Shown one piece after another: positions 13,322-40,386 of a DNA stretch of 64,000 nucleotides (positions are counted from its first letter, which is position 1; every line of letters starts with the position of its first letter). The translations under genes were made by a program, and so were the position numbers. This DNA comes from a virus: positions 1-64,000 of IMG/VR virus record IMGVR_UViG_3300025645_000002; one strand, given 5' to 3'. The notes under the pieces are model-generated. The model had not been told where the DNA came from. It worked only from the letters and a program-made list of their open reading frames with translations, and ran no database searches.

Positions 13322-13330
13322 GGAACCAAC

Positions 13331-13852
13331 ATGTCTACAGTCAACGGACGCTCCCTCATCGAAGCAGGCCCCATCGCAAACATGCTTGAAGTCAAAGAGC
13401 GCCTTCATGGTGTCTCGCACGGCTTGACTGAAGCCGGATACGACATCCGTCTCAAGCAGGCCATCAAGTTCTCCCGCAGTGTCGGGGGCAGACCAATGGT
13501 TGAGGTTGACGATGCCTACGGTCAAGCAGTGCACACTGCCCGTGGCCGCTTTGTCATTGCTTCTGCCATGGAACGCTTCACCATGCCTGACGATCTCGTC
13601 GGCGTGGTCCATGACAAGTCTACATGGGCACGCCAAGGCGTGTCTGTCTTCAACACCGTCATCGAGCCAGGTTGGCAAGGCTTCCTCACACTTGAGATCG
13701 TTTTTCACAGCGAGACAGAAGTCATCATTCCTGCTGGTGCAGGTATCGCACAAGTTCTCTTCTCACGTGTTGAGAACCATGCTAAATATGCGGGCAAGTA
13801 TCAGGATCAAGCAGACGAACCAGTCTCTGCCATCCTCGAATCCTCCTCATAA
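13331..13852 (+). CDS. dcd: dCTP deaminase / dUTPase-family protein
   Basis: The 173-residue trimeric-fold protein shows the conserved HDKSTWARQGV (K-S-x-x-A-R) and VIEPGWQGFLTLEI segments of the dCTP deaminase and dUTPase superfamily. The glutamate in VIEPG aligns with the deaminase-type position, so dCTP deaminase, giving dUTP as a precursor for ThyX, is the first choice. Some members do both deamination and dUTP hydrolysis. AAGGAA precedes the ATG. It is the last gene before the plasmid module. Confidence 0.85.
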   Translation: MSTVNGRSLIEAGPIANMLEVKERLHGVSHGLTEAGYDIRLKQAIKFSRSVGGRPMVEVDDAYGQAVHTARGRFVIASAMERFTMPDDLVGVVHDKSTWARQGVSVFNTVIEPGWQGFLTLEIVFHSETEVIIPAGAGIAQVLFSRVENHAKYAGKYQDQADEPVSAILESSS

Positions 13853-13853
13853 A

Positions 13854-13912
13854 GTTGCCTCCCCCTGTGCCTGTGTCCTCGAACGCTTACCCAGCGTTTG
13901 GCAGGGGGCAAC
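13854..13912 (+). other. GC-rich nested hairpins after dcd
   Basis: A GC-rich arm pair GTTGCC...CCCCTG with GGCAGGGGGCAAC (13900-13912) encloses a small perfect hairpin AACGCT (13882-13887) with AGCGTT (13893-13898). It directly follows the dcd stop and precedes the strong terminator at 13913. It may be part of that terminator or the start of the structured region downstream. Confidence 0.5.
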
Positions 13913-13947
13913 TGTCTGGTCAGTTCCTATGCTGATCAGACATTTTT
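13913..13947 (+). terminator. Rho-independent terminator of the middle operon
   Basis: TGTCTGGTCAG (13913-13923) pairs with CTGATCAGACA (13932-13942) over 11 bp with one G-T, and TTTTT follows directly. It isolates the plasmid replication module from readthrough of the thyX-dcd operon. Confidence 0.8.
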
Positions 13948-13949
13948 AT

Positions 13950-14310
13950 TCAAGAATATGGTTGTAGATCGTGCCATGGGTAGCCCCCTAACGGTCTTGC
14001 TTGCAAGGCAACCGTACCCGACAGCTCTGATTCCAGTCCGCCGCAAGGACGTTACGAGATGATGAGTTGTCGGGATTAATCCCTCGGGACGCCGGCTTGC
14101 TAGGTCGGGGTATAAAACATCAGTAAGCAGAGAAGCCCGGGCACATACTCGGATATCTGCTAAGTCGTCACGGCATAAGGACCTGCAAAGTCTGGACCCA
14201 GGGCGCAACCTCATAGCCCAGCCAGCGGTGGCTTTATAACACTGCGCAGCCAGAGGGGGTAGCTGCCATGTGGCTTCTCCGGCCTAGTCTAATCCGCTAG
14301 GTTACTCCTG
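13950..14310. ncRNA. Candidate structured non-coding RNA or regulatory region
   Basis: About 360 bp without a convincing gene but with many local stems: ACGGT-CTTGC (13991-14000) with GCAAG (14003-14007) and ACCGT (14011-14015); CCCGACA (14017-14023) with TGTCGGG (14068-14074) enclosing GTCC/GGAC (14036-14039, 14047-14050); TCCC/GGGA (14080-14089); GCCA/TGGC (14221-14232); GCAGC/GCTGC (14246-14266); and CCTAG/CTAGG (14283-14301). The GC content is above that of the flanking intergenic DNA. It lies just upstream of the replication initiator, where copy-control RNAs often occur. I recognise no known RNA family. Strand is undecided. Confidence 0.45.
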
Positions 14311-14319
14311 ATCTGGTAC

Positions 14320-14348
14320 GTGTGTGGGGGCTTATCACCCCCACACAC
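14320..14348. terminator. Strong perfect hairpin upstream of rep
   Basis: GTGTGTGGGGG (14320-14330) and CCCCCACACAC (14338-14348) form an 11-bp perfect stem with a 7-base loop. There is no T-run on the plus strand, so it may be a barrier to transcription entering rep, a structural end of the upstream RNA, or a protein site. It stands 11 bp from the inverted iteron. Confidence 0.5.
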
Positions 14349-14358
14349 ACTCTTAAAT

Positions 14359-14374
14359 GTAAGGTATTCGGGGA
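14359..14374 (-). promoter_or_regulatory. Inverted iteron at the rep promoter, predicted Rep operator
   Basis: The sequence GTAAGGTATTCGGGGA is, read on the other strand, TCCCCGAATACCTTAC, which matches the downstream iteron TCCCCGAATCTCTTAC at 14 of 16 positions. It lies 40 bp before the rep start. In iteron plasmids of the Rep_3 class, an inverted copy of the iteron in the promoter is bound by Rep dimers and represses rep. That role is inferred from the match and position. Confidence 0.7.
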
Positions 14375-14413
14375 ACCCTTCCCCATCTCCCCGTCAGGCC
14401 CTAATCTACAGGC

Positions 14414-15304
14414 ATGACAAACACTCCCAAAACCTACCGAGTCCTTGAACTCAAGCCCTCGTCTGACACAGCTTCGAAACCTTCGGAGCTTATCCAGATC
14501 CGCGGGCATGATGGGCTCACGCTCAATGCACGCAGAGCCATTACCCTTCTCTGGCATAATGCTCACCGTCAGGGCATCGAAGAGAACAAGGACTATACCA
14601 TTGAAATAGACCAGCTCATGCCCCTGCGGCACAAAGGCTATGAAATGGTTGAAGAGGCTATTGAAGCCCTTATGACCACACTGATCATGGTCCCGCTCCC
14701 GGACGGCAGCACACGCCGTGTGCAAGTCCTGGGCGGGAATGATCTCACAGACAAGAACCGCCGTGCGGGAACGCTGACCTACAGCTTCGACCGGCGTCTT
14801 GTGGAAGTGCTGCGTGACAGTGCCATCTGGGGTAAGATCTCGATCCCCGAACTCATGGCCTTCTCGTACCGCTACTCCATCACGCTTTATGAGCACATCT
14901 CTCAGTGGATCGGTCTGACGCAGATGCAGGGAAAGACCTTCAATCTCGAAGAATTCCGCCATGTCCTCGGTGTCACTCCCAACAAATATAAGGCATTCGG
15001 GGGATTGAACCAACAAGTCCTGAAACCTGTTCTGGCTGAGATCAATGCATTGGCTCCATTCAATGTTGCTATACAGCCAATAAAAACAGGGAAAAGTGTA
15101 ACGCACATCCGTCTGCAATGGTGGGAGAAGTCTATCCCAGAACGCCAAGAGGCCTACGCTGAAGTCAATCGATCCAAGATCGGAAGACGTGCAAGGATCA
15201 AAGGCAACGTGGAATATGTGCTTCCTTCCGTCTCTTCACCACAACGTCTTGTGCGTGATGCTAGGAAATCAGCCACAAAGAATGATGATTCACTGATTGA
15301 ATAA
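14414..15304 (+). CDS. repB: Plasmid replication initiator, Rep_3 (RepB) family
   Basis: The 296-residue product has the two winged-helix domains of Rep_3 initiators. The first (about residues 25-150) starts with LTLNARRAITLLWHNAHRQG. The second (about 155-250) contains SITLYEHISQWIG, then FRHVLGV and YKAFGGLNQQVLKPVLAEIN, ending with THIRLQWW. Such proteins bind iterons to open the origin and recruit host helicase. The gene is followed directly by an iteron array and preceded by an inverted iteron. Only a weak ribosome site (ACAGGC) precedes the ATG, which fits low expression. A plasmid-type initiator is foreign to the N4 replication system, so this is a module acquired by transfer. Confidence 0.92.
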   Translation: MTNTPKTYRVLELKPSSDTASKPSELIQIRGHDGLTLNARRAITLLWHNAHRQGIEENKDYTIEIDQLMPLRHKGYEMVEEAIEALMTTLIMVPLPDGSTRRVQVLGGNDLTDKNRRAGTLTYSFDRRLVEVLRDSAIWGKISIPELMAFSYRYSITLYEHISQWIGLTQMQGKTFNLEEFRHVLGVTPNKYKAFGGLNQQVLKPVLAEINALAPFNVAIQPIKTGKSVTHIRLQWWEKSIPERQEAYAEVNRSKIGRRARIKGNVEYVLPSVSSPQRLVRDARKSATKNDDSLIE

Positions 15305-15475
15305 TCCCCGAATCTCTTACAGCAACTCCCCGAATCTCTTATTTTACTGCCCATATTCCTTACCGGACTCCCCGTATATCATACACTTAGTCCCGTAAGC
15401 TTTTGATTTTGTTAAGCGAATACCGCTTAGAATCTATGAATTCCAAATCAAAAGAGAATCTCCCGAATCCCTTAC
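15305..15475 (+). other. oriV: Iteron-type plasmid origin of replication
   Basis: Direct repeats of about 16 bp follow the rep stop codon: TCCCCGAATCTCTTAC (15305-15320), TCCCCGAATCTCTTAT (15327-15342), TGCCCATATTCCTTAC (15348-15363), TCCCCGTATATCATAC (15369-15384), a weak copy near 15390, and CTCCCGAATCCCTTAC (15460-15475). The first four are spaced 21-22 bp apart, two helical turns, as expected for iterons bound on one face. An AT-rich stretch with palindromes separates the last copy from the others and is a plausible unwinding site. The strand is that of the iteron consensus. Confidence 0.85.
15400..15454. repeat. Nested palindromes inside the origin
   Basis: CTTTTGATTT (15400-15409) is inverted perfectly as AAATCAAAAG (15445-15454). 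Within it TAAGCG (15413-15418) pairs with CGCTTA (15424-15429) around the loop AATAC. The block is AT-rich and lies between the tandem iterons and the last iteron, where DnaA, IHF or strand opening would be expected in iteron origins. Confidence 0.65.
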
Positions 15476-15585
15476 ACTTGTAACTCGCCAATAGCGGGAA
15501 TTTTTCCTTGTGTCATTGCCCTCTTTTTTGGTAACACCACACCACACCACACCTGTTCTCCCTCCTCCCCAGGTTCGGTGCTTCA
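15476..15585. other. Intergenic DNA with CACACC repeat tract
   Basis: No gene. The plus strand has AACACCACACCACACCACAC at 15533-15552, one of several CA-rich tracts in this genome, preceded by a T6 run (15523-15528). The rest is pyrimidine-rich. It separates the origin from the partition operon. Confidence 0.5.
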
Positions 15586-15630
15586 GGCCGGTCCAGCCTC
15601 CTCCTCCCAGAGTTCACTGGACCGGTCTTT
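15586..15630 (+). terminator. Terminator at the end of the replication module
   Basis: GGCCGGTCCAG (15586-15596) pairs with CTGGACCGGTC (15617-15627) over 11 bp with one G-T, followed by TTTTATTTA on the plus strand. It would stop plus-strand transcripts from rep and the origin before they run antisense into the par operon. The par operon ends on the other side of it. Confidence 0.7.
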
Positions 15631-15875
15631 TATTTAGGGACTTTGTTGCCTTGAACATAGTACGCCATCAGAACCCCAACCATCTCACCGTTGGTTCTCC
15701 GCTCGGTCATACACAGCTGCCGAAAGTTCTCGTAGTCGCTCTCCGGCATACGCACAGACATCTGCACAACTGGGTTTGCTTCGCGCCTGCCCCAACGCTT
15801 ACTGCGCGCTGCGACGAGTTCAGGGTTCTTTTCGGCTTCTTGAGCCAATCCTTCAAAGTTCAAACTTTTAGCCAT
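15630..15875 (-). CDS. Ribbon-helix-helix partition protein (ParB/ParG-like adaptor)
   Basis: The ATG at 15875 is chosen because GGAGG lies just upstream. The 81-residue product has a flexible charged N-terminus and a C-terminal ribbon-helix-helix fold (PVVQMSVRMPESDYENFRQL, then NGEMVGVLMAYYVQG). Small RHH proteins following a ParA gene act as centromere-binding adaptors and operon repressors, as ParG and Omega do. Its gene overlaps the ParA stop by 8 bp. The probable binding sites are the 10-bp repeats in front of parA. An alternative reading is a VirC2-like protein. Confidence 0.75.
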   Translation of the reverse strand: MAKSLNFEGLAQEAEKNPELVAARSKRWGRREANPVVQMSVRMPESDYENFRQLCMTERRTNGEMVGVLMAYYVQGNKVPK

Positions 15876-16566
15876 TACGACCTCCATCATGGTTAAGGCG
15901 AGGTTCTCTTACCCAGCCCAGAAGCTCACGCACCTCTTCTCCAAAGAGGTCGGCGTTAGCCATCGCCTTCTCAACGCCACTGACCTCAACTCTGTCGAGA
16001 TCGTGCAGCGTTCCCCCGTAATTATGCAAAGAGGAATAAGCAGTGCGGTTGTGCAATTCGATGTCAAACGCGCCTACCTTCGCTCTTACCTGTGCATTCA
16101 GGGATTTTGCCAACCGCGACTTCACCGCGGCTTGCGTACGCGCAAACAAGATCCTCACCGGGATCTCCCTACGCATCGACCGAGCCTCAAGATTTACTTG
16201 AGCCAGTGTCTCGATCGCTCCTTCGGCATCCGGCTGTTCGTCTCCCATGGGGATGATCACAAGATCACTCTCCCCCATGGCAAATGCATTCAGCCGGGTG
16301 GCCGCTCCTTCCAGGTCCAGAATAACGAAATTGAAGTCCCGGTCAGCGATCGCAATCGCATCATGGATTTCTCTCTCGCTCGTGCAAGACAGCACTCTGA
16401 TATTCTCAGGAAGATTTGCTTTCGTGGCCCACGCCTTCAAGCGTTGAGCGGGATCTGCATCAATAACGCAAACCCGGCTTCGTTGAGCCAACGTGACGGC
16501 AAGTATAATTGCCGACGTGGTCTTACCAGCACCCCCTTTGGAGGATGCAAATGTGATGATCGCCAT
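15868..16566 (-). CDS. parA: ParA-family partition ATPase
   Basis: The ATG at 16566 (MAIITFASSKGGAGKTTSA) has CTGGAG upstream. The 232-residue product carries the deviant Walker A KGGAGKTT (residues 10-17) with the signature lysine, the Walker A' region VCVIDADP (about 34-41) and Walker B NFVILDLEG. It is a small ParA without an N-terminal HTH (type Ib, near VirC1 and ParF). Such proteins form ATP-dependent patterns on the nucleoid to move plasmid copies. With the RHH gene it makes a complete segregation pair, transcribed divergently from the phage replication operon. Confidence 0.9.
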   Translation of the reverse strand: MAIITFASSKGGAGKTTSAIILAVTLAQRSRVCVIDADPAQRLKAWATKANLPENIRVLSCTSEREIHDAIAIADRDFNFVILDLEGAATRLNAFAMGESDLVIIPMGDEQPDAEGAIETLAQVNLEARSMRREIPVRILFARTQAAVKSRLAKSLNAQVRAKVGAFDIELHNRTAYSSLHNYGGTLHDLDRVEVSGVEKAMANADLFGEEVRELLGWVREPRLNHDGGRNG

Positions 16567-16630
16567 ACTCAGACTCCAGTTTCCCAATCAAAGCCGTGCT
16601 CCCACCATACACATACTTTTTTAGATTTGT

Positions 16631-16660
16631 GTATCAAATTGTATCAAACTGCATCAAATC
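16631..16660. promoter_or_regulatory. parS: Three tandem 10-bp repeats, candidate centromere/operator
   Basis: GTATCAAATT, GTATCAAACT and GCATCAAATC follow each other without gaps 65 bp upstream of the parA start. The exact 10-bp period places them on one face of the helix. RHH partition proteins bind such short tandem repeats both as operator and as centromere, so this is the likely site for the downstream RHH protein. The sequence pattern is direct; the binding role is inferred. Confidence 0.65.
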
Positions 16661-16701
16661 ACCCCAAATCGCTGCTTTCATGTAGTTTTTTGGGGTTTTT
16701 T
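16661..16701 (+). terminator. Hairpin followed by T-run
   Basis: ACCCCAAA (16661-16668) pairs with TTTGGGGT (16689-16696) and is followed by five more T residues; there is also a T-run on the loop side of the right arm. It could terminate plus-strand transcription before the replication operon. It abuts the 10-bp repeats. Confidence 0.55.
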
Positions 16702-16721: not shown

Positions 16722-17228
16722 ATGAGCTCCCCTACCGGTATTTCTACCTCACACGACGAGATACACGCACTAGCTCTCATGGTTTCTGCTTCGCTGGATA
16801 CCCCCCTTCACCTCATAAAGAGGGACGGTAAGCTCACCCACGCTCTTATGCGTGTCCGTCAGCGCATCATACGGGAAGTGCATTCTGTGGGGCGTTACAA
16901 GCGCCAGACCATTGCCGACTTCTTCGGCCTTTCAATCTGCACAGTGACGGCCTCCCTCACAGAAGAGCAGAAATGTAAGCCCCGCCCCTACACACCCGAA
17001 GAGGACGCCTTGATCGCCTCGATGCACCGTAGCGGAAGTTCGATCCCACAGATCCTCAAGCACATATCCTCCCGCTCAGCCTCCTCCATCCGCAGACGCT
17101 TGGCTCATCTCAAGAAAGGAGATCCATCGATCTCCCGTGACCACCAGCCCACATATCTGGGATGCGTCCCTCCGTTAATGCTCGAGCTTGCTCGTCGAGA
17201 GAATGAACGGATGCGGAGTAATTTATAA
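16722..17228 (+). CDS. SANT/Myb-like DNA-binding protein, possible regulator
   Basis: AAGGAAGG precedes the ATG. The 168-residue product has a first helix-turn-helix-like part (KRQTIADFFGLSICTVTASL, about residues 66-85) and a second, SANT/Myb-like part (YTPEEDALIASMHRSGSSIP, then SASSIRRRLAHL). This suggests a sequence-specific DNA binder. It stands between the partition operon and the helicase gene, where a regulator of the replication operon or of the switch between plasmid and lytic states would fit. No known repressor family is recognised, so the regulatory role is inference. Confidence 0.65.
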   Translation: MSSPTGISTSHDEIHALALMVSASLDTPLHLIKRDGKLTHALMRVRQRIIREVHSVGRYKRQTIADFFGLSICTVTASLTEEQKCKPRPYTPEEDALIASMHRSGSSIPQILKHISSRSASSIRRRLAHLKKGDPSISRDHQPTYLGCVPPLMLELARRENERMRSNL

Positions 17229-17292
17229 CTCCCCATTCCGTTTTTTTGAGGGGGTCTTCCAGAAACTCCCACTCCTCAACGAAAGACATACC

Positions 17293-18666
17293 ATGACCTC
17301 CCTCAATCCTGACCAACTGAAGGCAGCCAATGCCTTCCTAGACTTCATGCTCTCCGATGATATCTATGCCGTCATCACCGGCCCTGCTGGTGTCGGAAAG
17401 ACCTTCCTCATGGAGCACCTCTCCAACAACGGTATGAAGATGTACGCCGATGCATGTACTCTTATACAGGAAGAGCCAAAATACACTGAGACGCACTTCA
17501 CAGCCACAACCAACAAAGCCGCTGAAGTTCTCGGTACATCCATTGGCAAGCCTGTCAGCACCATCCACTCATTCTTGGGTCTCAAGATTCAACGGAACTT
17601 CGACACAGGCAAAGCCTTCTTAACCAAGTCGCGCAACTTCCATATTCGCGAGGGTGTCGTCGTCTTCATTGACGAAGCTTCTACAATCGACACCGACCTC
17701 ATGAAGTTTCTCGATATAGGCCTGCCTAATTGCAAGATTGTCTTTGTAGGTGATCACGCTCAGATGGCCCCGGTCAACGAAGACATCTCCCCCGCATTCC
17801 TTATCGGTAAGCCAGAGAACTGCTACACGCTGACCACGCCTGTGCGTAACGCCGATACCCCAGCACTCATGGCTCTTTGCCAGCAGCTGCGTGACACTGT
17901 CGAGACAGGTATCTTCAAGCCTATCGTGGCTGTCCCTGGCGTCATCGAGTACCTCACACCAGATCACATGGAAGAAGGTCTGGGGTACGTCTTCGAAGAT
18001 CCCGATCCTTCTTGCCGTGTCCTGTGCTTCACAAATGACCGCGTCAAAGACTACAACGCCCACATCCGCGAAGATGTCCGCTCTCTTCCGGCGCACCTGA
18101 CCGTAGGTGAAGCTGTCGTTGTCGGTGACTCCTACCAGCGCGGCCAACTCACATTCTCCGTCGAGCAGCAACTCACCATCACGTCTGTTGGACCTGACTT
18201 ACCGACCGGCTACGAGTATGAGGGTGAGCCTGTCATGGCTCGTGACGTCGGCTTTGGTGATGCCGACCCTGACGCACCCTTCTTTGGCGCCCCCGTCTGC
18301 ACCAACCCTCACGTCCTCAAGAGCGCCCTTGCAGTGGTCAAGCGGCGTAAGGACTGGCGCACCTTCTACGAGATGAAAGACCGCTTCCTGGATATCCGGG
18401 ATAAGGCCTCTTGCACCGTCTATAAATCACAGGGCTCCTCCTACGATTTCGTCTTCGTGGATCTGGGGAATATCGGAACCTCTTTCGATGCCCAGCAGGT
18501 AGCGCGCATGATCTATGTCGCTGTCTCCCGAGCACGCCATAAGGTCTTCTTCTATGGTGAGCTCCCCAATCGCTACAACGACTCCAAAGGAGCTCAGCTA
18601 TGGATCCCAAAGAATGGGCCGAACTCATCTCAGGAAAACTCCTCGAATACGACCGAGGCCGCCTGA
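17293..18666 (+). CDS. RecD/Dda-like superfamily 1 DNA helicase, N4 gp37-like
   Basis: The ATG at 17293 begins MTSLNPDQLKAANAFLDFML. The frame extends upstream, but that part reads poorly. The 457-residue product has Walker A GPAGVGKT (residues 30-37), the DEAS box of motif II (VVFIDEAST), a motif III-like FVGDHAQMAP and the C-terminal UvrD_C_2-type region (TVYKSQGSSYDFVFVD then ARMIYVAVSRARHK). Dda-like helicases unwind 5' to 3' and support phage replication and recombination. The 3' end overlaps the next gene by about 67 bp. Confidence 0.9.
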   Translation: MTSLNPDQLKAANAFLDFMLSDDIYAVITGPAGVGKTFLMEHLSNNGMKMYADACTLIQEEPKYTETHFTATTNKAAEVLGTSIGKPVSTIHSFLGLKIQRNFDTGKAFLTKSRNFHIREGVVVFIDEASTIDTDLMKFLDIGLPNCKIVFVGDHAQMAPVNEDISPAFLIGKPENCYTLTTPVRNADTPALMALCQQLRDTVETGIFKPIVAVPGVIEYLTPDHMEEGLGYVFEDPDPSCRVLCFTNDRVKDYNAHIREDVRSLPAHLTVGEAVVVGDSYQRGQLTFSVEQQLTITSVGPDLPTGYEYEGEPVMARDVGFGDADPDAPFFGAPVCTNPHVLKSALAVVKRRKDWRTFYEMKDRFLDIRDKASCTVYKSQGSSYDFVFVDLGNIGTSFDAQQVARMIYVAVSRARHKVFFYGELPNRYNDSKGAQLWIPKNGPNSSQENSSNTTEAA

Positions 18667-29817: not shown

Positions 29818-32800
29818 CTACCACGGAAGCAAATTATCCGTGATCGCGTGGAACGGGTGGAGTTGCGGTGAATTCAGCCCCATCTCTGGTCCGAAGGAGA
29901 ACGGTAGGCTGTCATCCATGTATTTACCGAACAGGGATCCTGACATAACACTGTCTACTCCGGCTGCAGGACCTACCTGCCCCATCATGACCAGCGACGA
30001 CAATGGACGTTCCCGCATCATATTTGCAGAGACCTTCATGATCCGTAGCGCATAGTTCATGAACCAGACCATGCCCATGCTTTCCAGATAATCCCGCCCA
30101 CGTCCTGGCAAGCGGTTATACTGCACGAACTCTTCCATGATGATATCAAGCACCTCGCGCTGGTCTTTACCCTGCGCAATGAGATGATCGTACAACACAG
30201 CCTTGGCGACGAAGTCACCATATTGGACCATCCGGTTCAGGCCTTTGAAGATCGCCGTATCCTTCGTGATCGCGATATTCCGGGCCACGGTGCCTGCTGA
30301 CTCTGGCAAACGATCAACCGCTTTCTCGATGTAATCCATCAAACGGCCCTCACGCACGGCTACGTCCGCCTCTGTGAGGTCTTCTGAGATCGTGGAGAAC
30401 TCACCCGCCTCAATCAAAGGAGCGATCGACATGCGCTTGTTTGCCGCCTCTAGGGACGCAATCCTTGCTTTGATCTTGTTACCCGCGTCTGTGTCTTCAA
30501 TCCGCGCTGCATAAGAAATCTGCAGTTCGCTGATCTTCTCCTTGTTGCGCACATACTCTTGGATCTCCAAGATCTTCTCGCGTCCGCTTGTTGCAATCGT
30601 GTTCACCGGTACGCCTCGCAGTGTCAGATGCAATACGTTGGAGACAATGTTGGCCGTACCCACAACCGCGGATCTGACAATGATTGTTGTCTTCGCAACG
30701 CCAACCGCATCCTGCGCAAACATCTCACCCTTCTTGAGCCAAGGATATGCTCGCTTGCCTCCGATGAGTGTGACCAGATCCTTGACCACTTTCTGGGCTT
30801 TTGGATCAAGACGCGACTGTCCTGTCCACACATCTGTGATCGACGGAGCCCGATACCCTACCACATCTTCGATGAGATCTTTACGCACATAGAACGTATC
30901 AGGCGACTCGAAGATCTCCTCTGCGTATTCCTTGATCCCAGCACCCATTGTGGCCCATGCATCCTTGTAGATCTTATCTTTGATCTTTGGATCTGCAATG
31001 TTCACGTATTCGGCGCCACGTCCTTTGGCCAAACCCTCTTTGTAATTCTCCATCACACCATCGACGAGCACTTCGTTGAATTCGTGTGCTGCCTCTTCCT
31101 CAAGAAGACGTCCTGCCCACACACCGAGCATCCGCCCCATGTGCGTGTCTTTCTGAAGACCCCGTGTTTTGGCTGGATCCATGTGACGGTCATACCCCAC
31201 AACATTCCAATCCTGATCAAAGATCGGCATCATGTACTCACCCGGAGCCAAGTTATCGAGGCTTCCTGGCTGTGCACGTGCCATTCTCTCGCCAATACGG
31301 CCCGCCCTGACGCCTTTGAGTGTCCCTGCCACTGTATCGCTGCTCAGAGCCCCTGTAAGGACGCTGACGCCGCTGTACGTCGTGTGTACGGTCTGTGCTA
31401 TGCCCTGCTTGAAGGTGGCTTTGCCTGCCGTTGTAGACTGGTAATAGCCCCGACGCTCACGCACATCCTCATCACGGCTACCATTGTAGTCACCAATGCG
31501 GACCCACCCCTGCATTTCCAGCTCTTGCTGGTTGCTGTCGAATTCCACAACCACTTTTGAATTTGGCTGCGTTGCGTTTGGCACGTACCCATGCAGTGCA
31601 TTGTGCGTCGCAATAGCCCTCTTCTCTGGATCAGCAGACAAAGTCTTTTCCAATTCCAGTGCGCGCACCGAAGCTGTCAGACCAATGACTGCATCCATTC
31701 CGGCACTCTCTTTTGCCATCAGATCGGCCATTGCTTTCTTCGATGCAGCGTCAGTCATCTGATACGCATAGAGCGCCACCAACCGATCGACCTGATCAAT
31801 CGTTGCTTGGCTCACTGTAGCCGGATCTGGCCTCCCCTTCTCACCACCCAAGTGTGCAATTGCATAAGCATTCCGCAGCAAGTGTGTGCTGGTCAGTTCA
31901 TCCGTTACACGGAAGCGCGCCAGAGCTTTTGCTTTGTCTGCGTACCGGCTTACGAAGTTTGGAGCCAATCCCTGAAGACCTTCCAGAGTGTCTGCAATTC
32001 GCTGGTCTACTGTCGCCGGGTTTGCCAGAAGTGCTTTGCTCTCAACCAGTCCCAGAATGCTCAGGCCTGTTGTGCCGATTGCCTTGTGTATCCCTGCCCA
32101 TTCTTTGCCTTCAAGCTTACGGCTGAAAGCCTTAGCCAACGTCTCTGGTGTGTTTTCGCGGAAGTCCTGACGCAGCGCATCGATCTTGGCTTTGACCGGG
32201 TTGATCAAACGCAGCAAGTTCATGTTGCTTGTGTTTCCCCCACGCAAGTCATGCAATGTGGCGCGTACTGTGTTCCAGCCCTCGATACTGTTGAGGAATG
32301 TCGTCATCGTATCACCGCGGGCTTCAGACTCTGTCTTCGATCCCATGGCTGCAATGAAACTCATTGTGTTGAAGGCCAGCTTTTTGGTTTTATTGTCCGT
32401 GGCATTTGCACGTCCACGGGTGAACCGGCTTGCCTGTGTGCTCTTTGTATCCACGTACCCGGCGACCGCTGCGTTGGCTTTGTCGATCTGTTTGCTCAGT
32501 GCACCTGAAGCTTTATCCAGACGCGTCTCGCTATCGAGCGCCGAGATCCCTTGTGACAATGCGTCCAGTATCCGTCCAGCGGAACCCTGCCGGCCGATGT
32601 CCTTGAAGCTCAATCGAGCCAAAGCAGACATGGCGAAACTACCTGCGGATTCAATCGCTGTGTCAAAGCTGCTGTACTCGAACTTCGCGCTCGGCGTCAC
32701 TTCCATGCCCGCCAATGCTTCACGGAACAATGGGCTGCTTTCGCTCAGAGCCAAGAACTTCACCATCAGCTCTGTGTCGCGACCACTTTGCAGGTACGCG

Positions 32801-35800
32801 ATCTGTGCCTTGGCTGTGTCTTCATCAATGGCTCCAGCATTCACCATGATCTCAGGTGTGATCTTTGAGAGCACCTCATCGTGAAGCGCATGCAACTGAC
32901 GCAGAAGTGCTGGGTTCAATTCAACCGCACTGCTCATGAAGGAATGCACTGACCTGAAAGCACGTTGCTGTGCCACACTCATTTTGAAACCGGCAGCCAC
33001 TGCGCGCTCAGCACCCTTACGACCATCAAGCAATAGCTTTGCAGTATCCCGTTTGATCTGTTCACGTTGAGCTGCGGTCGATTCATTGGCCCCAGTCTTG
33101 ATTGCTTTACGACGTGCTTCCAAAAACTGACGACCCCGGCGCTGATACCGTTGGTTGATGTGCCATACACGCTTTGCAGCCTCGGACTGATTTCCACTTT
33201 GGTTCATCACCAGATCCGCAGAGCTTGTTGTCTCTGCCGCATCCATCAGGATTACCTTCGTGTTGAAGCGTACCTGATCGAAGATGTCCTTTGTGGGCAC
33301 GTCACTGTTACTCAGCCCCAAGATACGCTTAAGCGCAGCCAGGCTCTGCTTCACGACACGGCTGAACCGCTGATAGGATGTCATCCCGGCTGACCAGTCT
33401 GACAAGCCTTGGTTCGTCAAGATGTACGCTACGAACTCCAGCATCTGCTCCGTAGGCTGACCTTCGTAATCATTGAGAACTTCTTGCAGTGTCGCCAGAC
33501 CTGCATTGACAGCATTCATGCCACGGACTTCAGCCATCAGACCGGTGAGGTTGTTCATGCCAAGCGTGACTTGCTCAGGAGCATTCTCAGGGTCTTTGTA
33601 GAATTCCGACACAACCGAGGCTGTCTTCGTGTGCATCATCTCATGCAGGAACGTCTCTGGCGTCTGGTTGGTTACAAATGCAATGCCCTCACCCAGATAC
33701 GTGACACCGGCTTTGATCGGGTCATTCCCCAAGTCAGGGTACGCATCTGCACGGAAAGCATTCAGTTCGGCTTCAGTTCCGAAGTAATACTGCGTTCCTG
33801 CGATCGCTGGATCTTTCCAGAAGAACTCCCCGAGGATCTTACGTTTGGAACCAGACAAAGATGTCTTCATCTTTCCGAGGGCTTTGGTCAGTGTCTTTCC
33901 CGACACGCGCCGTACGCCTGGATGACTCCCAGAAACAGGTTCACCAATCTCATTCAGCGCCTCTGTGAAGACTGGGTCCACTGGGTCAAGATACCCGTCT
34001 TCTTGGGTTTCTTCCTTGGCCATTTCCGCTTCAACAGTCTTGTTCAGCTCTGCAGCAATAGCAGCAGCATCTAGCGGAGATGCACCTGCAATGGTGCGTC
34101 CCTCCGTGCTGTGAGGCTTCTCTGCCCCTGCCATGTGGTCAACCTGCGCTGCCATCTCTGACATCGCTTTCTTGCGTGCTGCCTGTTCTTTGGCCTTTTG
34201 GTTAAGGACATCCACAACCGACTGCAAATCTGCATAGGCAGGAAGTTTCCCCTTCTCGAGGCCCATTGCACGACCGATTTCCTTCTTCGTGTCTGCGCTC
34301 AAAGAATTCCACATCTCAGGTGTCAGGCGGGTCAGCATAGCGGTGAAGCCCTCCGACACACCTTGGTACATATTGCTTTGCATCCAAGCATCCCACACCG
34401 CTTTGTTAATCGCGGGAGCCTGATCCTCAATCCTATCGATCGCCATCTCGACGCCGTCGAAGACGGCAAGAGTGGCGGTCATATCTGCCTCAATCTGATC
34501 GTAAATGTTGAGCATCATCTGCCCGTCACCAAGACCGATTGTCATGTAAGGTGAGACTTTCACAGACGCATCTGCAGGCTGAACCCCAGTCAGTTTTGCT
34601 GCGAGTTTTCCGCTAAAGCTTTCCGAGGCCACTTTGTCCAGACGGTCCCGCTCAGGCTTAGCAATATGGAAGCTTGCATCAGGGCTCTCGTAGATCGGTG
34701 CGAAGCCCATCATTTCAATGAAGCTCTCCTCCAGATCTACTTCGGACGGTATAGTACCGGCCTCGCCTGTCAGCATTCCTTCTTGGTTCTGCCTAAACAG
34801 CTCCTTGAAGATAAGCGTCTGAATGCTCGCTGCGCCTTGGATCAACTGCATGTTTGTGCGCAGTCCCCCGGTCGCCCGGTTAACCGACTGCATCATAGGC
34901 TCTGCGAAGTTTTCCTGAATCCTCGTTGATGCCGTCAAAAACGAAGCTGCATTCATTGAGGCATTCACAGGATCAGCGAAGACCTTTTGCAACTCCCGTA
35001 CATCTTCAATGTCTCCAAACAACGCAGCCAGATCCGCCATGAGGTCTTGGTTCTTTTGGAAGGTCGGGTGAGACATCCAGCCTTTAGGCAAACTGCCGTC
35101 AGCTTTACCTTTGGCGATCTCAGACATCGTCTTGTAGATCTCTTTAACAATCGCGTTCGTCAGTTTGTCGGCGATGCCTTTTTCACCCGAACCATACAGG
35201 AAGACCGTCAAGGGGTTTTTCACCAAACCTCGTTTGATCCTGATTGGATCTCCTTCGATCCCTGTCAGCTCAAAATCAGGCAAGAACGCATCGAACACCC
35301 GCATAAGCGACATGTTCTTTTCCAGCTCCGCTGGGTCAGATGTGAGACTATCTTCCAGATCTGCGGCCGCCAGGTGATATAGATCCTGCGCCCGGTTATC
35401 TTCGTTGCCTGTTACGCCAACCTCCTGCTCGATATAATCGCTCAAAGATGTTGGCTGATCTGTGAAGAACAATCCTCCCTTAGCGAACCGCACCACATCC
35501 ATTGCAGTGAATAGGCCCGTTGCCATGTTCACCATGGCATTAACTGGACCATCCGTTTTACCGTCAGCCTCGAGTGCAAGGTGGGTAATGAACTCGCTGC
35601 CCTGCTCTTGGTTCAGTTCCGCTACAGTCATCAGCGCGTGCACAAGCTTCGCTGTGGGCTCTACGCCGCCTTTGGCGATGGCTGCTGCCAGATCACCCTG
35701 ACGTAACTCGCCGGTCTCTAGCCAGTTCTCCAACACCACGACAGCATCAAACAAGGCTCCGCCTGTCGTGACCATATCCTGTGCCTCGCCAATGACGGCG

Positions 35801-38800
35801 CTGTGCTTGCTCTTCTCAACTGAGATGTCCAGCGACTGTGCAATTGCGAGCCAAAGACCTTTGACGTGAGTTTCGTTGCGCAAATCGAGCGTCGAGCGTG
35901 TCTGTGAAATAGCTTCACGCGCAATCTTGTCACCCTGCGGTGTCACTGCCCCCTGCTGCTGTAACCGGTTCACTGAAGACAGGCGCCAGGCAAAGTAAAT
36001 AGGCACACTGCTGAAGGTCCCACCAGTAGCCTGAGCAGTTTTATCCGCGGCTTGCGAATACTCTGCGACACCAGACAATCCCTGTTGCAGAGAGATATTT
36101 TTACCCTCAATGGAGCTCAGATCTTCCTTGTTGGTTACGGCGCGCACATCGTCTGTGACATCAACGTACCCAAGGATGTTTAGATATTCTGCATCACCTA
36201 GCGCTTCTATTAGATCAACCAGACCCCCGTTTATGAACGCCGGAGTATTCTGTAGCTTGTTAATAACCCGTGCTGCCTTCTTAGAGATCGGGGCCAAACG
36301 GTTCTTGATTTGGTTTGGGTTGATCTGCTTTGGGGCCGTACCAACGTACATCACATTGTCAAAACCTGCTGTCAGTGTTGCAGTGAACGGTTTTGTCAGG
36401 CTCTGTACTTTAGCAAAGTCTGCGTCCTTCTGTACGTCCTCAGACATAGATAGGCTGATCATCGTCTTCGGCGCCGCTTTACCGCCTATGTCGGTCGTGG
36501 AGAAGCGGATGCTGTTTTGGCTCAACGATCCGTTATCAATCAAGACTTCCAACGCACTGCTTGCCATTGCACGGAATAGACCCTGTGTCTCTGTGATCTC
36601 TGCTGTTGGGTCAGCCTCGATGCCCAACAGATCTTCCATGGTTTTCGCCATATCCTCGATGGCTGTCTGAAGTGGGATACCTGTTGTGGCAAACGTCCGC
36701 ATCTCTGCTGTGACTTGACCATTCCGCCCCATACCAAACATTTTCGAGACATACTCGTCATCGATCCGTGGCAGGCCACGCTTTGCTTGCCCAACAATCC
36801 AGTCCATGGCGGCCATATAGGCTGCCTGAGCAACCATTGGATCCAACTCAAAGCTGGTGCCGGTGTCTGTTGTGATCGCGTTCAGCGGCAGTGCGTTGCG
36901 GTATCCAAGGATCTTCGCAATCTTTCCGCCTCGCAGTTCGTCTCCCCATCCTTTGGAGTCGATCAGTACATTCATTGCTTTATTCAAAAGCCCGGTGAAT
37001 TCCCCGGCGCCATTTGCAATCGAAATCAGTGCCGCTTGCTCATCGATTGTCAGTTCACGATCCAACGCTTCGACACGGATCTCTCCGCTACGAATAGCCT
37101 CGGCCAGCGCTTCCTGAGAGCCCTCATACTTCCCCAGCGTTGACTTACCTTCCTTGTGACGGAATGCATTTGCCAGCACATTGCGGCCTTCCGCCGACTT
37201 CATGTTCAACTTTGCTTTGAGGTTTTCGAACCAAGTGCCCTCTACGGGTGCCGCTGGTTCTTCAACAAACTCCTCTAGTGAAGCTCGATCGACATCGGCT
37301 CCATCTGCAGAAACACTATCTTCTCCAACGCTGGAAACAACGGACTCTCCCGACTCACGCGTCCCCCCTTGAATATCAGGTTCCTGAGTTGATCCCGTTC
37401 CCACTTCGAGATCTGCTTCGATCTCCGCAGCATCTTGAGCGACTTCTGCGTCGACGGGTACTCCTCGTGCTTCCACAGCTTCTTCGATTTCTCTTTCTTG
37501 CTGGACCTCTGGCTCACGAATAGTCTCCTCGGTTGTGTCGATTTCTTCGATCACATCGACATCTTCCTCCACAACAGGCTGCGCCTCTTGCGTCGTCGCT
37601 GTCTCGCTCTCTGGGTTGGTTGGGGTTGGTGTGGTTTGGTTTCCAGTCAAACCCAATTTCTCTGCAACAAGTTTTGTTGGGAGTGTCAGACCATACGCCT
37701 CGGCCAAAGCCTCTACCAAAGCCACGGCTGTGTTTGCGTCCACCTCAACTTCACGCGCTTGAGCGATCGATCGTGGATTTGCCTCGTCTACCCAGACGCC
37801 TTTTTGGTCAAAGAAACCGCTGCCGTTATAGGCCCGGTATCCTTTTTTGCTTTTGCTTCCGCCACCTTCGGCTTTGCTTGCAGCCAGTGCCTTCAGTTTG
37901 TTGACTTGGCTCTCTGCAAAGCTGCTGAGTTCTGTCAGTGCATCCTGTGCCCGTTCCACGTGACCGCTGCTTGCTGCGTCGGACACTCTCCGGCGGTGCT
38001 GCAACAGGGATGGGAGGTTATTCGTCTTGTTGCCTGTCAGGTTCACTTCATCGCGTACGATGTCGTATGTGCCGTGAGGGCGTGCCCGTGCAGTCTTCTT
38101 CTGCTCAGGTGTCAGGTTCTCAATGGCTTTCGCCTGATCAGCGACCAGTTCCGCTTTGAGTGTATCAGCACGCTGAAACTCCTCGGCGACTGTCTTTGCC
38201 AACTGCAACTTCTTCTTCAGGCCCTCGGCTTGCTTGCCTCCACCAACTTGGTTCAGAACCAATCCAATAAGCTCTGCGCCTACTGCATCCGGGTTAATGC
38301 GCGCAATCAGCTCTAGCCGTCCTGCTTCTTCAAGCCGGTCTTCTATGGATGCATCTTTGTTCTTAATCAGATCCAAATCAATGATACCGGCCACTGTTTC
38401 TGGCGTGTATCCACGGATCTCGGCCTCGGCTTTCGCGATAGCTGGGCTGCTGTTAACCGTTTTGATCTGCTCTTCCAAACGGGCAAATTCTTCTTTGGTC
38501 TGAACATTTAGAGGATCGCTTGAATTCAGCTTGTTGATCTCGGCCCTGACGTCATCCGAATCTACAGCACTCATTTCTTCTCTCAGTTCCATGAACGAGA
38601 ATGCTGCGATTTGACGCTGTTCCTGTGTTTCGTTTTTATCATCAAGCACAGCGGCAAATTGGTTCACAACATCCAACCGGCTCAAAGGCACGTCAGGGTT
38701 TGTTGCTTTCTTCTCTGCGAGGGTAGGGAACTTTTCAGCGAATGCCACTTCTTCGTCTGGTGACAGTAAAGAAGCAGATTTTACGCGCTCCCCAACAACT

Positions 38801-40386
38801 TGCGCTTCTGCGCTTTGCTCTGGTGTGGTTAGATTTGACACCACTGCACTCGCTGCGGCCGAGATATTCGTTGCGGCTGTCTCTTGTGCAACAGACCCTG
38901 TCACAGACGTTTCATCTGCCTTCTTCTCTAGGGAATCCATGCGTGCTGTGGCTGCTGCGGATACACCACCAGCTGCAGCAAGGGCGACAGCCCCGGCTGC
39001 GGCGGGGGTTTGCATTGCGCCAGATGTCATTGCGCCGCCAAGAGCACCCAATGCCGCATTACCACCAACACCTTCAATCGGATCGATGTCTAAGCCTGCG
39101 CCAATATTCTGACCCAGATTGGATGCAAGCTGTGTATTCGCTTCCTGTAGAGTTTCTTCAACAGTCTCGCCGACCACATTGCCTGCAACTGAACCAAGGC
39201 CACGTGAGGCACCGCCCAGAGGATTGACTGTGAAGCTCTTGGAGAGGTTACCTGCGAGGAATGCACCGGGCATGGACAAGAGACCTGCCGTCGTACCTGC
39301 TTGGCTCGCCAGGGCACGCTGTGCGTCCTCATGGCTATCACCGCTGTCCCGCAACGCCACATAGTCGCTGCTCTCACCCAACTCGGCCTCAGACATGCCC
39401 ATGATCGCCTGCTGGGCCTGATTAATGCCTGCGCCACCTTCAGACAGGGTGGCCAGAACCGGTACAGCACTCTCGGCACTCTCCGTCATCATCTTGCGGC
39501 CAGCGGGCGTAGACAGGAATGTTTTTGCTGCTGCGGGGGTCATACCCCTCGATGTGAGTTCTGCCGTTGCGCGCGCTGCGCCAATACCGCGTGCTGCCAA
39601 GCTAATAGGCAAGAGGGAACCAACAGCATTGGCTGCCAAGTTCGTCATTGCCTGTGGGTTTGTTGCCGCATTTGCACCGACATCTTTGAAGTCTTCGATG
39701 ATGTTTGTGGCTCCGGGAACGAAGGTCCTCTCGAAGAACCCGGCATCTTCGGACATCCCGGCCACTGTGGCTGCACGTTCTCTGGCGTTGTCTCCCTGTA
39801 GGATCTCCGCCTCGATACCCTGTTGGCTTTCACCCTCTTGCGCCACTGTGCTTTTCGCGCCTTGCAGCGCATTGGTGAGAAAGCCTGTCGCTTCTGACAC
39901 ATACGGCGCCAGTTGTGTTTTGTCTTCTGTGCCTAGGATCTGGTGACGTAGCGCATCATACCCATCAATCGCCCCTGCAACGGCTGCCCCTGCACCCCCA
40001 AGAAGGTTGGTCGTGCCCTGCGCAACACCGAGACTTAGGTCGCCTGCAATCTGTGTCCCTGTGCGTCCACGGTTCTTGTCTTCACGCAGTTCCCGATCAG
40101 CTTGGGCAAACCGATACCGGTTCTGTTCCGCCTCGACACCATACTTTGCCGCAAAGGCAATTGGCTCCAGCGTGCGCATATCAACAAGTTCTTGGCTGCG
40201 ACTCAACTCGGAATCGACGATGACGTTGGAAGCAATCTGTCGCTGCTCTTCACGGGAACCAAAGATGGCTTGCTTCATCAAGGTGGACATTTCCACCATC
40301 TGTGCCTTCTGCTCCGTAGGGCTGGGGACATCGACGTTGTCCAGTTGTCCAATAGTAGCAAGCTCAGAAAAGTTGAATTCGGCCAT
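29818..40386 (-). CDS. vRNAP: Virion RNA polymerase, N4 gp50-like
   Basis: The 3,522-residue product is of N4 vRNAP size (about 3,500) and in the same place, last of the late operon. The central part has the T7-like polymerase motifs: FAWRLSSVN followed by GAVTPQGDKIARE (the TxxGR region, about residue 1467), EADGKTDGPVNAM (motif A with catalytic Asp, about 1612), RGLVKNPLTVFLYGS (motif B, about 1718-1732) and LAVFDGVEMA (motif C, about 1975). Their spacing matches what I recall of N4. In N4 the enzyme is injected with the DNA and transcribes early genes from hairpin promoters. Two oddities: motif C has FD where many relatives have HD, and an HEMMH zinc-protease-like motif lies near residue 2247. 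A proline-rich acidic linker precedes the polymerase domain. Confidence 0.93.
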   Translation of the reverse strand: MAEFNFSELATIGQLDNVDVPSPTEQKAQMVEMSTLMKQAIFGSREEQRQIASNVIVDSELSRSQELVDMRTLEPIAFAAKYGVEAEQNRYRFAQADRELREDKNRGRTGTQIAGDLSLGVAQGTTNLLGGAGAAVAGAIDGYDALRHQILGTEDKTQLAPYVSEATGFLTNALQGAKSTVAQEGESQQGIEAEILQGDNARERAATVAGMSEDAGFFERTFVPGATNIIEDFKDVGANAATNPQAMTNLAANAVGSLLPISLAARGIGAARATAELTSRGMTPAAAKTFLSTPAGRKMMTESAESAVPVLATLSEGGAGINQAQQAIMGMSEAELGESSDYVALRDSGDSHEDAQRALASQAGTTAGLLSMPGAFLAGNLSKSFTVNPLGGASRGLGSVAGNVVGETVEETLQEANTQLASNLGQNIGAGLDIDPIEGVGGNAALGALGGAMTSGAMQTPAAAGAVALAAAGGVSAAATARMDSLEKKADETSVTGSVAQETAATNISAAASAVVSNLTTPEQSAEAQVVGERVKSASLLSPDEEVAFAEKFPTLAEKKATNPDVPLSRLDVVNQFAAVLDDKNETQEQRQIAAFSFMELREEMSAVDSDDVRAEINKLNSSDPLNVQTKEEFARLEEQIKTVNSSPAIAKAEAEIRGYTPETVAGIIDLDLIKNKDASIEDRLEEAGRLELIARINPDAVGAELIGLVLNQVGGGKQAEGLKKKLQLAKTVAEEFQRADTLKAELVADQAKAIENLTPEQKKTARARPHGTYDIVRDEVNLTGNKTNNLPSLLQHRRRVSDAASSGHVERAQDALTELSSFAESQVNKLKALAASKAEGGGSKSKKGYRAYNGSGFFDQKGVWVDEANPRSIAQAREVEVDANTAVALVEALAEAYGLTLPTKLVAEKLGLTGNQTTPTPTNPESETATTQEAQPVVEEDVDVIEEIDTTEETIREPEVQQEREIEEAVEARGVPVDAEVAQDAAEIEADLEVGTGSTQEPDIQGGTRESGESVVSSVGEDSVSADGADVDRASLEEFVEEPAAPVEGTWFENLKAKLNMKSAEGRNVLANAFRHKEGKSTLGKYEGSQEALAEAIRSGEIRVEALDRELTIDEQAALISIANGAGEFTGLLNKAMNVLIDSKGWGDELRGGKIAKILGYRNALPLNAITTDTGTSFELDPMVAQAAYMAAMDWIVGQAKRGLPRIDDEYVSKMFGMGRNGQVTAEMRTFATTGIPLQTAIEDMAKTMEDLLGIEADPTAEITETQGLFRAMASSALEVLIDNGSLSQNSIRFSTTDIGGKAAPKTMISLSMSEDVQKDADFAKVQSLTKPFTATLTAGFDNVMYVGTAPKQINPNQIKNRLAPISKKAARVINKLQNTPAFINGGLVDLIEALGDAEYLNILGYVDVTDDVRAVTNKEDLSSIEGKNISLQQGLSGVAEYSQAADKTAQATGGTFSSVPIYFAWRLSSVNRLQQQGAVTPQGDKIAREAISQTRSTLDLRNETHVKGLWLAIAQSLDISVEKSKHSAVIGEAQDMVTTGGALFDAVVVLENWLETGELRQGDLAAAIAKGGVEPTAKLVHALMTVAELNQEQGSEFITHLALEADGKTDGPVNAMVNMATGLFTAMDVVRFAKGGLFFTDQPTSLSDYIEQEVGVTGNEDNRAQDLYHLAAADLEDSLTSDPAELEKNMSLMRVFDAFLPDFELTGIEGDPIRIKRGLVKNPLTVFLYGSGEKGIADKLTNAIVKEIYKTMSEIAKGKADGSLPKGWMSHPTFQKNQDLMADLAALFGDIEDVRELQKVFADPVNASMNAASFLTASTRIQENFAEPMMQSVNRATGGLRTNMQLIQGAASIQTLIFKELFRQNQEGMLTGEAGTIPSEVDLEESFIEMMGFAPIYESPDASFHIAKPERDRLDKVASESFSGKLAAKLTGVQPADASVKVSPYMTIGLGDGQMMLNIYDQIEADMTATLAVFDGVEMAIDRIEDQAPAINKAVWDAWMQSNMYQGVSEGFTAMLTRLTPEMWNSLSADTKKEIGRAMGLEKGKLPAYADLQSVVDVLNQKAKEQAARKKAMSEMAAQVDHMAGAEKPHSTEGRTIAGASPLDAAAIAAELNKTVEAEMAKEETQEDGYLDPVDPVFTEALNEIGEPVSGSHPGVRRVSGKTLTKALGKMKTSLSGSKRKILGEFFWKDPAIAGTQYYFGTEAELNAFRADAYPDLGNDPIKAGVTYLGEGIAFVTNQTPETFLHEMMHTKTASVVSEFYKDPENAPEQVTLGMNNLTGLMAEVRGMNAVNAGLATLQEVLNDYEGQPTEQMLEFVAYILTNQGLSDWSAGMTSYQRFSRVVKQSLAALKRILGLSNSDVPTKDIFDQVRFNTKVILMDAAETTSSADLVMNQSGNQSEAAKRVWHINQRYQRRGRQFLEARRKAIKTGANESTAAQREQIKRDTAKLLLDGRKGAERAVAAGFKMSVAQQRAFRSVHSFMSSAVELNPALLRQLHALHDEVLSKITPEIMVNAGAIDEDTAKAQIAYLQSGRDTELMVKFLALSESSPLFREALAGMEVTPSAKFEYSSFDTAIESAGSFAMSALARLSFKDIGRQGSAGRILDALSQGISALDSETRLDKASGALSKQIDKANAAVAGYVDTKSTQASRFTRGRANATDNKTKKLAFNTMSFIAAMGSKTESEARGDTMTTFLNSIEGWNTVRATLHDLRGGNTSNMNLLRLINPVKAKIDALRQDFRENTPETLAKAFSRKLEGKEWAGIHKAIGTTGLSILGLVESKALLANPATVDQRIADTLEGLQGLAPNFVSRYADKAKALARFRVTDELTSTHLLRNAYAIAHLGGEKGRPDPATVSQATIDQVDRLVALYAYQMTDAASKKAMADLMAKESAGMDAVIGLTASVRALELEKTLSADPEKRAIATHNALHGYVPNATQPNSKVVVEFDSNQQELEMQGWVRIGDYNGSRDEDVRERRGYYQSTTAGKATFKQGIAQTVHTTYSGVSVLTGALSSDTVAGTLKGVRAGRIGERMARAQPGSLDNLAPGEYMMPIFDQDWNVVGYDRHMDPAKTRGLQKDTHMGRMLGVWAGRLLEEEAAHEFNEVLVDGVMENYKEGLAKGRGAEYVNIADPKIKDKIYKDAWATMGAGIKEYAEEIFESPDTFYVRKDLIEDVVGYRAPSITDVWTGQSRLDPKAQKVVKDLVTLIGGKRAYPWLKKGEMFAQDAVGVAKTTIIVRSAVVGTANIVSNVLHLTLRGVPVNTIATSGREKILEIQEYVRNKEKISELQISYAARIEDTDAGNKIKARIASLEAANKRMSIAPLIEAGEFSTISEDLTEADVAVREGRLMDYIEKAVDRLPESAGTVARNIAITKDTAIFKGLNRMVQYGDFVAKAVLYDHLIAQGKDQREVLDIIMEEFVQYNRLPGRGRDYLESMGMVWFMNYALRIMKVSANMMRERPLSSLVMMGQVGPAAGVDSVMSGSLFGKYMDDSLPFSFGPEMGLNSPQLHPFHAITDNLLPW

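What the first reader, a model, noticed from the sequence alone, without database searches (positions are those of the whole stretch)
13853..16701. A complete plasmid replication and partition module inside an N4-type phage
A Rep_3 initiator, an iteron origin, ParA and an RHH adaptor stand between dcd and the replication operon of a genome that otherwise has N4 gene order, vRNAP included. N4 phages are regarded as strictly lytic. The module is bounded by terminators on both sides (13913 and 16661), as expected for a self-contained cassette. If functional, the genome can persist as a segregating plasmid, without any integrase seen. I have a vague memory of plasmid-like N4 prophages in roseobacters but cannot verify it.
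Basis: partly seen in the sequence, partly recalled or inferred. Interest (0 to 1): 0.92.

Follow-up and report, generated by a model that had tools for sequence, protein, structure and literature searches.

The report
A clade of plasmid-equipped N4-like phages
This bacterial virus belongs to the N4 group, long thought to only kill its host, yet it and at least 16 related viral contigs carry a well-preserved plasmid copying-and-sharing kit, so the whole group may be able to live on inside bacteria as a plasmid.

Summary
Between dcd and the replication genes of a 70.7-kb N4-like phage genome lie a Rep_3 initiator, an array of iterons, and a divergently oriented ParA plus a small RHH-like protein. 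The genome has vRNAP, RNAP1/2, the N4 primase and portal, and no integrase or resolvase was found. It is not an assembly joint: two contigs of the same species from other metagenomes span both edges at 99.9-100% identity. Nor is it a one-off. I found 14 more N4-like contigs with the same ParA at the same place; Rep is present in all 13 of the 17 contigs that reach its position. On a primase tree the carriers form one side of a fully supported branch, and 20 N4-like records outside that branch lack Rep. Phage Rep and ParA are each monophyletic and sit among alphaproteobacterial plasmid homologues, so one acquisition followed by descent is the simplest reading. dN/dS is 0.02-0.08 for nearly all pairs. 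In every member tested, an inverted iteron upstream of rep matches that member's own iterons. The best explanation is a lineage of Schitoviridae phage-plasmids. Extrachromosomal persistence is inferred; no host carrying this clade was found. Integrase-bearing N4-like proviruses are published, but I found no report of plasmid-type N4 phages.

The parts
14414..15304 (+). rep: Rep_3-family replication initiator, 296 aa
   Evidence: Pfam Rep3_N and Rep3_C above cut-off; 58-62% identical to Reps of alphaproteobacterial plasmids; 54-58% to Reps of other N4-like contigs
14356..14374 (-). single inverted iteron upstream of rep, presumed Rep autoregulatory operator
   Evidence: matches the window's own iteron matrix at 23.6 bits, highest of 300 shuffles 12.9; equivalent site in all phages (9 others) and 4 plasmids tested
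15305..15387 (+). origin: four direct iterons (15305, 15327, 15348, 15369), consensus about TCCCCGAATNTCTTA, 22/21/21-bp spacing
   Evidence: same array in the same place in plasmids of Paracoccus sanguinis, Acuticoccus, Acidibrevibacterium
15460..15478 (+). fifth, outlying iteron
15400..15454 (.). AT-rich stretch with inverted repeat CTTTTGATTT/AAATCAAAAG, possible unwinding region
   Evidence: function is inference
15630..15890 (-). small RHH-like centromere-binding partner of ParA (ParG/CopG-like), 86 aa
   Evidence: conserved overlapping parA in the relatives (42-49% identity); helix pair 50-63/67-80 in the model; top though non-significant structural matches ParG 1p94 and CopG
15868..16587 (-). 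parA: small ParF/VirC1-type partition ATPase; likely start at about 16566
   Evidence: Pfam AAA_31/VirC1, PHROG ParA-like, nearest solved structures a plasmid ParA (5u1g) and ParF of TP228 (4dzz)
16629..16670 (-). 10-bp direct repeats (TTTGATRCA) upstream of parA, presumed centromere/operator
   Evidence: 23/30 matches at lag 10, none of 300 shuffles as high; related TTTGRTGYG motif upstream of parA in most relatives
13913..13942 (+). terminator-like hairpin after dcd
   Evidence: fold
16660..16701 (+). terminator-like hairpin before the replication operon
   Evidence: fold z -5.5 followed by T-run
13331..13852 (+). dcd, left neighbour
   Evidence: Pfam DCD
17188..18666 (+). RecD-like helicase, start of the N4 replication operon, right neighbour
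   Evidence: Pfam AAA_30 and UvrD_C_2
29818..40386 (-). virion RNA polymerase (3522 aa), N4 hallmark
   Evidence: PHROG 2206, 1845 bits

Best explanation
The module is a working low-copy plasmid replicon that the ancestor of one clade of N4-like phages took from an alphaproteobacterial plasmid. Rep binds the 21-22-bp iterons just downstream of its gene to start replication, and binds an inverted iteron upstream to control its own synthesis. The RHH protein binds the 10-bp repeats upstream of parA, represses the operon and, with ParA ATPase, moves copies apart on the nucleoid. A genome equipped in this way can be kept in dividing cells as a circular phage-plasmid without integrating, and can switch to the N4 lytic programme (vRNAP, own polymerase and primase). 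Shown from sequence: the genes, iterons, operator, their conservation and their single origin. Inferred: DNA binding, plasmid maintenance and the switch. Unknown: what holds the lytic genes off, since no classical repressor was found.
For: The full set of parts is present. Seventeen contigs including the window carry ParA at the same place, and Rep is found in all 13 that reach its position. Carriers form one side of a 100%-supported branch of the primase tree. Twenty N4-like records without the module lack Rep anywhere, and 19 of these 20 lack a ParA match too. Rep and ParA of the phages are each one clade (support 95/91 and 97/99) among plasmid homologues. dN/dS for Rep is 0.017-0.075 and for ParA 0.018-0.080, with one pair at 0.22 resting on very few changes. 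The upstream operator matches each member's own iterons even where the iteron sequence has changed, e.g. L018 and L035/L036. parA-RHH runs against the surrounding phage genes in all members. No integrase or resolvase. An independent parallel: a circular 75-kb A. baumannii 'plasmid' (pRBH2-3) is an N4-like phage, 98.4% identical over 95% of the 20 kb compared to Schitoviridae phage vB_IME_Ab2712, and carries its own ParA.
Against: No bacterial genome or plasmid record with this clade was found, although only one scan of species-representative genomes with strict patterns was possible. End repeats of 118 bp do not separate a circle from collapsed terminal repeats of a linear genome. No CI-type HTH_3 repressor, toxin-antitoxin pair or multimer resolvase was recognised. 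Injected vRNAP would be expected to start the lytic programme at once. The RHH assignment rests on a weak family hit and a mediocre model. The 10-bp repeats are clear in about half of the members only.
Confidence: 0.75

Rival explanations
1. Rep and the iterons serve only as an extra origin during lytic growth, and ParA/RHH position phage DNA in the cell during infection; there is no carrier state.
For: No lytic repressor recognised; the module sits beside the replication operon in all members; no carrier host found.
Against: N4-like relatives replicate without it. A partition system has little use in a lysing cell. Rep, iterons and ParA most resemble complete replicons of low-copy plasmids.
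Confidence: 0.13
2. The module is a weapon in competition: iterons and parS titrate or displace resident plasmids of the same incompatibility type, or exclude them.
For: Iterons match those of alphaproteobacterial plasmids, so incompatibility would follow if functional.
Against: Titration would not need an intact rep and parA kept under dN/dS of 0.02-0.08 with co-varying operator.
Confidence: 0.06
3. Recent or decaying cargo from a plasmid, or an assembly joint, without function in the phage.
For: The parts do resemble plasmid genes at 50-62% identity.
Against: Independent contigs span the edges; shared by a whole clade; purifying selection; iteron-operator co-variation.
Confidence: 0.03

Closest known systems
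Alphaproteobacterial Rep_3 iteron plasmids (Pukyongiella litopenaei p4, Paracoccus sanguinis pPspOM44, Thioclava p5, Acuticoccus p4, Acidibrevibacterium unnamed3)
   Same: Rep 56-62% identical, iterons of like sequence and 21-bp-multiple spacing after rep (clear in four of five), inverted operator before rep (in the four tested), parA plus small partner nearby
   Different: no phage structural genes seen in the stretches inspected; the gene order and orientation of parA relative to rep vary
TP228 ParF-ParG partition (type Ib ParA with RHH partner)
   Same: ParA nearest solved structures include ParF (4dzz, E 1e-33); partner's top structural match is ParG (non-significant)
   Different: other host group; sequence relation distant
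Schitoviridae (N4-like phages)
   Same: vRNAP, RNAP1/2, primase, portal, MCP, TerL, SSB and gene order; portal up to 55% identical to Achromobacter and Erwinia members
   Different: 20 other N4-like records lack the Rep
N4-like proviruses with integrase (PMC10654107)
   Same: claim of temperate life in N4-like viruses
   Different: integration by integrase/transposase; plasmid-type replication and partition not mentioned
Acinetobacter baumannii pRBH2-3 / phage vB_IME_Ab2712
   Same: N4-like genome recorded both as a circular plasmid and as a phage, with a ParA
   Different: distant ParA in a trio (ParA, about 102 aa, HTH_36 protein of 248 aa); no Rep_3 found; not in this clade
Roseobacter phage-plasmid of Tritonibacter mobilis (PMC10090143)
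   Same: phage kept as a plasmid with a par system in Rhodobacterales
   Different: 42 kb, P4-type primase, C1-type repressor; no N4-like features described

Membership tests
Schitoviridae | giant virion RNA polymerase | tested here: met
   PHROG 2206 over residues 50-3515, 1845 bits
Schitoviridae | N4 portal, MCP, TerL, primase, SSB, two small RNA polymerases | tested here: met
Rep_3 iteron replicon | two winged-helix Rep domains | tested here: met
   Rep3_N and Rep3_C above curated cut-offs
Rep_3 iteron replicon | direct iterons at two-turn spacing next to rep and an inverted copy at its promoter | tested here: met
Rep_3 iteron replicon | DnaA box in the origin (common, not universal) | tested here: not met
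   no TTWTNCAC[AC] match between 13853 and 16730; a CTGTGGATA motif (DnaA-box-like) recurs beside the iterons in relatives L019/L022
Type Ib (ParF-ParG) partition | small ParA with deviant Walker A and no N-terminal HTH | tested here: met
   239 aa, KGGAGKTT, ParF-like over its length
Type Ib (ParF-ParG) partition | RHH centromere-binding partner | tested here: inconclusive
   Pfam RHH_5 below cut-off; model pLDDT 66 with ParG/CopG as top but non-significant matches
Type Ib (ParF-ParG) partition | direct-repeat centromere upstream of parA | tested here: met
   10-bp repeats in the window; binding not tested
Phage-plasmid | phage structural and packaging genes together with plasmid replication/partition genes | tested here: met
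Phage-plasmid | maintained extrachromosomally in host cells | not testable with these tools
   no host genome with the clade found; needs an isolate
Integrating temperate phage | integrase | tested here: not met
   no PF00589 in G000, G002, G003; no PF00239 in G000

The most novel reading that the evidence does not exclude
A deep, diverse clade of N4-like phages (Schitoviridae), probably infecting alphaproteobacteria, are all temperate phage-plasmids that inherited one plasmid replicon. Other N4-like lineages, including one recorded as a circular plasmid in A. baumannii, gained different ParA systems independently, so extrachromosomal persistence evolved repeatedly in a family regarded as lytic.
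Probability: 0.6. Interest if true: 0.85.

Novelty: new variant of a known kind. Interest (0 to 1): 0.78.

Why it matters
N4-like phages have been considered strictly lytic (PMC10654107), and phages of this group are studied for phage therapy partly for that reason (general knowledge). A clade-wide, selected plasmid replicon would mean part of the family can persist as plasmids, which integrase-based lifestyle predictors would miss. It also opens the question of how a phage that injects its own RNA polymerase can stay silent, and gives ready genetic tests (replication of the rep-iteron fragment, partition by ParA/RHH).

Tried and rejected
Assembly chimera: rejected by two independent contigs. 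Recent transfer or decay: rejected by the clade distribution, trees, dN/dS and co-varying operators. Finding a host: one genome-contig scan with the portal gave only a 69-kb N4-like contig in a metagenome bin, with no Rep and only weak partial ParA matches in that bin; Rhodobacterales genomes could not be set as a search centre. Rep against phage records gave only distant hits. The 13.9-14.4-kb structured stretch as part of the module: no match in Rfam, plasmids, phages or relatives. Literature: ten searches on N4/Schitoviridae with plasmid, phage-plasmid, ParA, lysogeny and roseobacter terms gave no report of this. The 'excisionase' PHROG hit at 61386-61721 is weak (E 5e-4), without Pfam or NCBIfam support.

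Full report
WHAT IS THERE. The window is bases 1-64000 of a 70,741-bp virus record whose ends share an exact 118-bp repeat, so the map closes. It is an N4-like phage: virion RNA polymerase (1845 bits), two small N4-type RNA polymerases, major head protein, portal, terminase, N4 primase and SSB. Between dcd and a RecD-like helicase stand a Rep_3 initiator with both Rep3 domains above cut-off, an iteron array, and, on the opposite strand, ParA with a small overlapping partner. Terminator-like hairpins lie at 13913-13942 and about 16660-16701. No tyrosine integrase, serine resolvase or HTH_3 repressor was found.

IT IS REAL. Two contigs from other metagenomes, 99.9-100% identical to the window over 15.8-20.9 kb, contain the module with both edges. 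One of them differs from the window in the long minus-strand gene at 5527-9408, presumably a tail fibre, and still has the module.

IT BELONGS TO A CLADE. A ParA scan of viral contigs gave ten further N4-like contigs, with ParA 65-71% and RHH 44-49% identical and, where the contig reaches it, Rep 55-59%, next to the helicase and polymerase genes. Rep and primase scans and a wider ParA scan brought the total to 17 contigs including the window. All have ParA at this place. Thirteen also have Rep; the other four end before the rep position. Two other members are long (72.5 and 66.6 kb) and share the N4 core with the window. On a primase tree of 81 rows the 14 carriers used are one side of a 100%-supported branch and the 21 non-carriers the other. 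Whole-record searches found no Rep in 20 other N4-like records, and a ParA match in only one of them, G022. The tree was a quick one with a warning on long branches, so its inner order should not be trusted, but the branch between carriers and non-carriers is fully supported.

ORIGIN. The nearest Reps outside the phages are in plasmids of Rhodobacterales and other alphaproteobacteria (best 61.6%), where rep lies within a few kilobases of parA and a small partner gene. The phage Reps form one clade (support 95/91) and the phage ParAs one clade (97/99), each placed among plasmid sequences. One acquisition followed by descent is the simplest reading. Related ParAs of other plasmids sit beside a gene annotated as replication initiator protein A, so rep and par seem to be exchangeable blocks in plasmids yet stay together in the phages.

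FUNCTION KEPT BY SELECTION. Close pairs give dN/dS of 0.017-0.075 for Rep and 0.018-0.080 for ParA, apart from one ParA pair with too few changes to judge. The window's iterons are spaced 22, 21 and 21 bp and start at the rep stop codon; the same kind of array stands after rep in plasmids and in most relatives, though L023 gave no array above chance. Upstream of rep, every member tested (10 phages, 4 plasmids; L023 left out) has a single inverted iteron that scores above shuffles with the member's own iteron matrix. Where the iteron has drifted (CTGATTTCCTCACAG in L018, CCCCAGATTNGTTA in L035/L036) the operator has drifted with it. This is co-variation of two separate DNA sites read by one protein, and I consider it the strongest evidence that Rep still works. 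I placed the iteron starts by eye, so the matrices are not blind. Upstream of parA the window has 10-bp repeats (TTTGATRCA) with 23/30 matches at lag 10, none of 300 shuffles as high; several relatives have weaker forms.

HOW IT PROBABLY WORKS. Rep fires the iteron origin and represses itself. ParA resembles ParF of TP228 and its partner resembles ParG, though this match is weak. Together they would segregate copies. This is the equipment of a low-copy plasmid, so the phage most likely has a carrier state as a phage-plasmid. How the lytic programme is held off is unknown.

PARALLEL CASES. The only N4-like plasmid in PLSDB that the portal finds, A. baumannii pRBH2-3 (75 kb, circular), carries another ParA with two further genes, one an HTH_36 protein. 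It is 98.4% identical over 95% of the 20 kb compared to the Schitoviridae phage vB_IME_Ab2712 from hospital sewage, whose record is marked UNVERIFIED. A 74.5-kb IMG/VR contig whose identifier looks like that of an isolate genome has an identical ParA and a 127-bp end repeat. A metagenomic N4-like genome (G022) has a similar trio between its two RNA polymerase genes. These are different systems and suggest repeated gain, but a plasmid label in an assembly may also come from a phage-infected culture.

LITERATURE. A 2023 survey reports integrase-bearing N4-like viruses and integrated proviruses and says the group was considered strictly lytic; the word plasmid does not occur in it (PMC10654107). 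Roseobacter phage-plasmids are known, but of another type (PMC10090143). No paper found describes an N4-like phage with Rep, iterons and Par. The library lacks most subscription journals, so priority is not proved.

VERDICT. Observation confirmed and extended to a clade. The interpretation as a phage-plasmid is likely but unproved in cells. New variant of a known kind.

Noticed in passing
window 13915-14400: GC-rich noncoding stretch between dcd and rep that folds better than shuffles (z -4.3 for 13855-14415); no match in Rfam, plasmids, phages or the relatives. Candidate structured RNA of unknown function.
   Followed up: partly
window 15504-15633 (+): Two anti-Shine-Dalgarno motifs CCTCCTCCC (15561, 15600) and a strong terminal hairpin downstream of rep; weak resemblance (E 0.065, below cut-off) to the alphaproteobacterial sRNA ar14. 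Possible phage-borne sRNA.
   Followed up: partly
window 19099-21120 and 21760-22524: DNA polymerase A is broken into two genes with about 0.7 kb between; the first part ends in a conserved tail of about 42 aa that starts with Cys at the break. Also broken in L021 and L045, intact in G002, L017, L018, L023. Fractured gene or split intein, unresolved.
   Followed up: partly
L021 about 12410-14359 (-): ThyX interrupted by an in-frame insert that looks like an intein with an HNH nuclease (CLAGDAML ... VVHN/S).
   Followed up: partly
L138 9346-10997 (A. baumannii pRBH2-3); L139 10994-12722 (G022): Other N4-like genomes carry a different partition-like trio: ParA, a protein of about 105 aa, and an HTH protein of about 249 aa (HTH_36 in pRBH2-3).
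   Followed up: partly
L190 (IMGVR 3300035670_000470) 4455-5048: A further contig with N4-like polymerase and helicase matches and a distant ParA (30%) away from them.
   Followed up: no
L002 3979-4893 and 8046-9287 (genome 63979-69287): The two small N4-type RNA polymerase genes stand about 3 kb apart with several small genes between.
   Followed up: no
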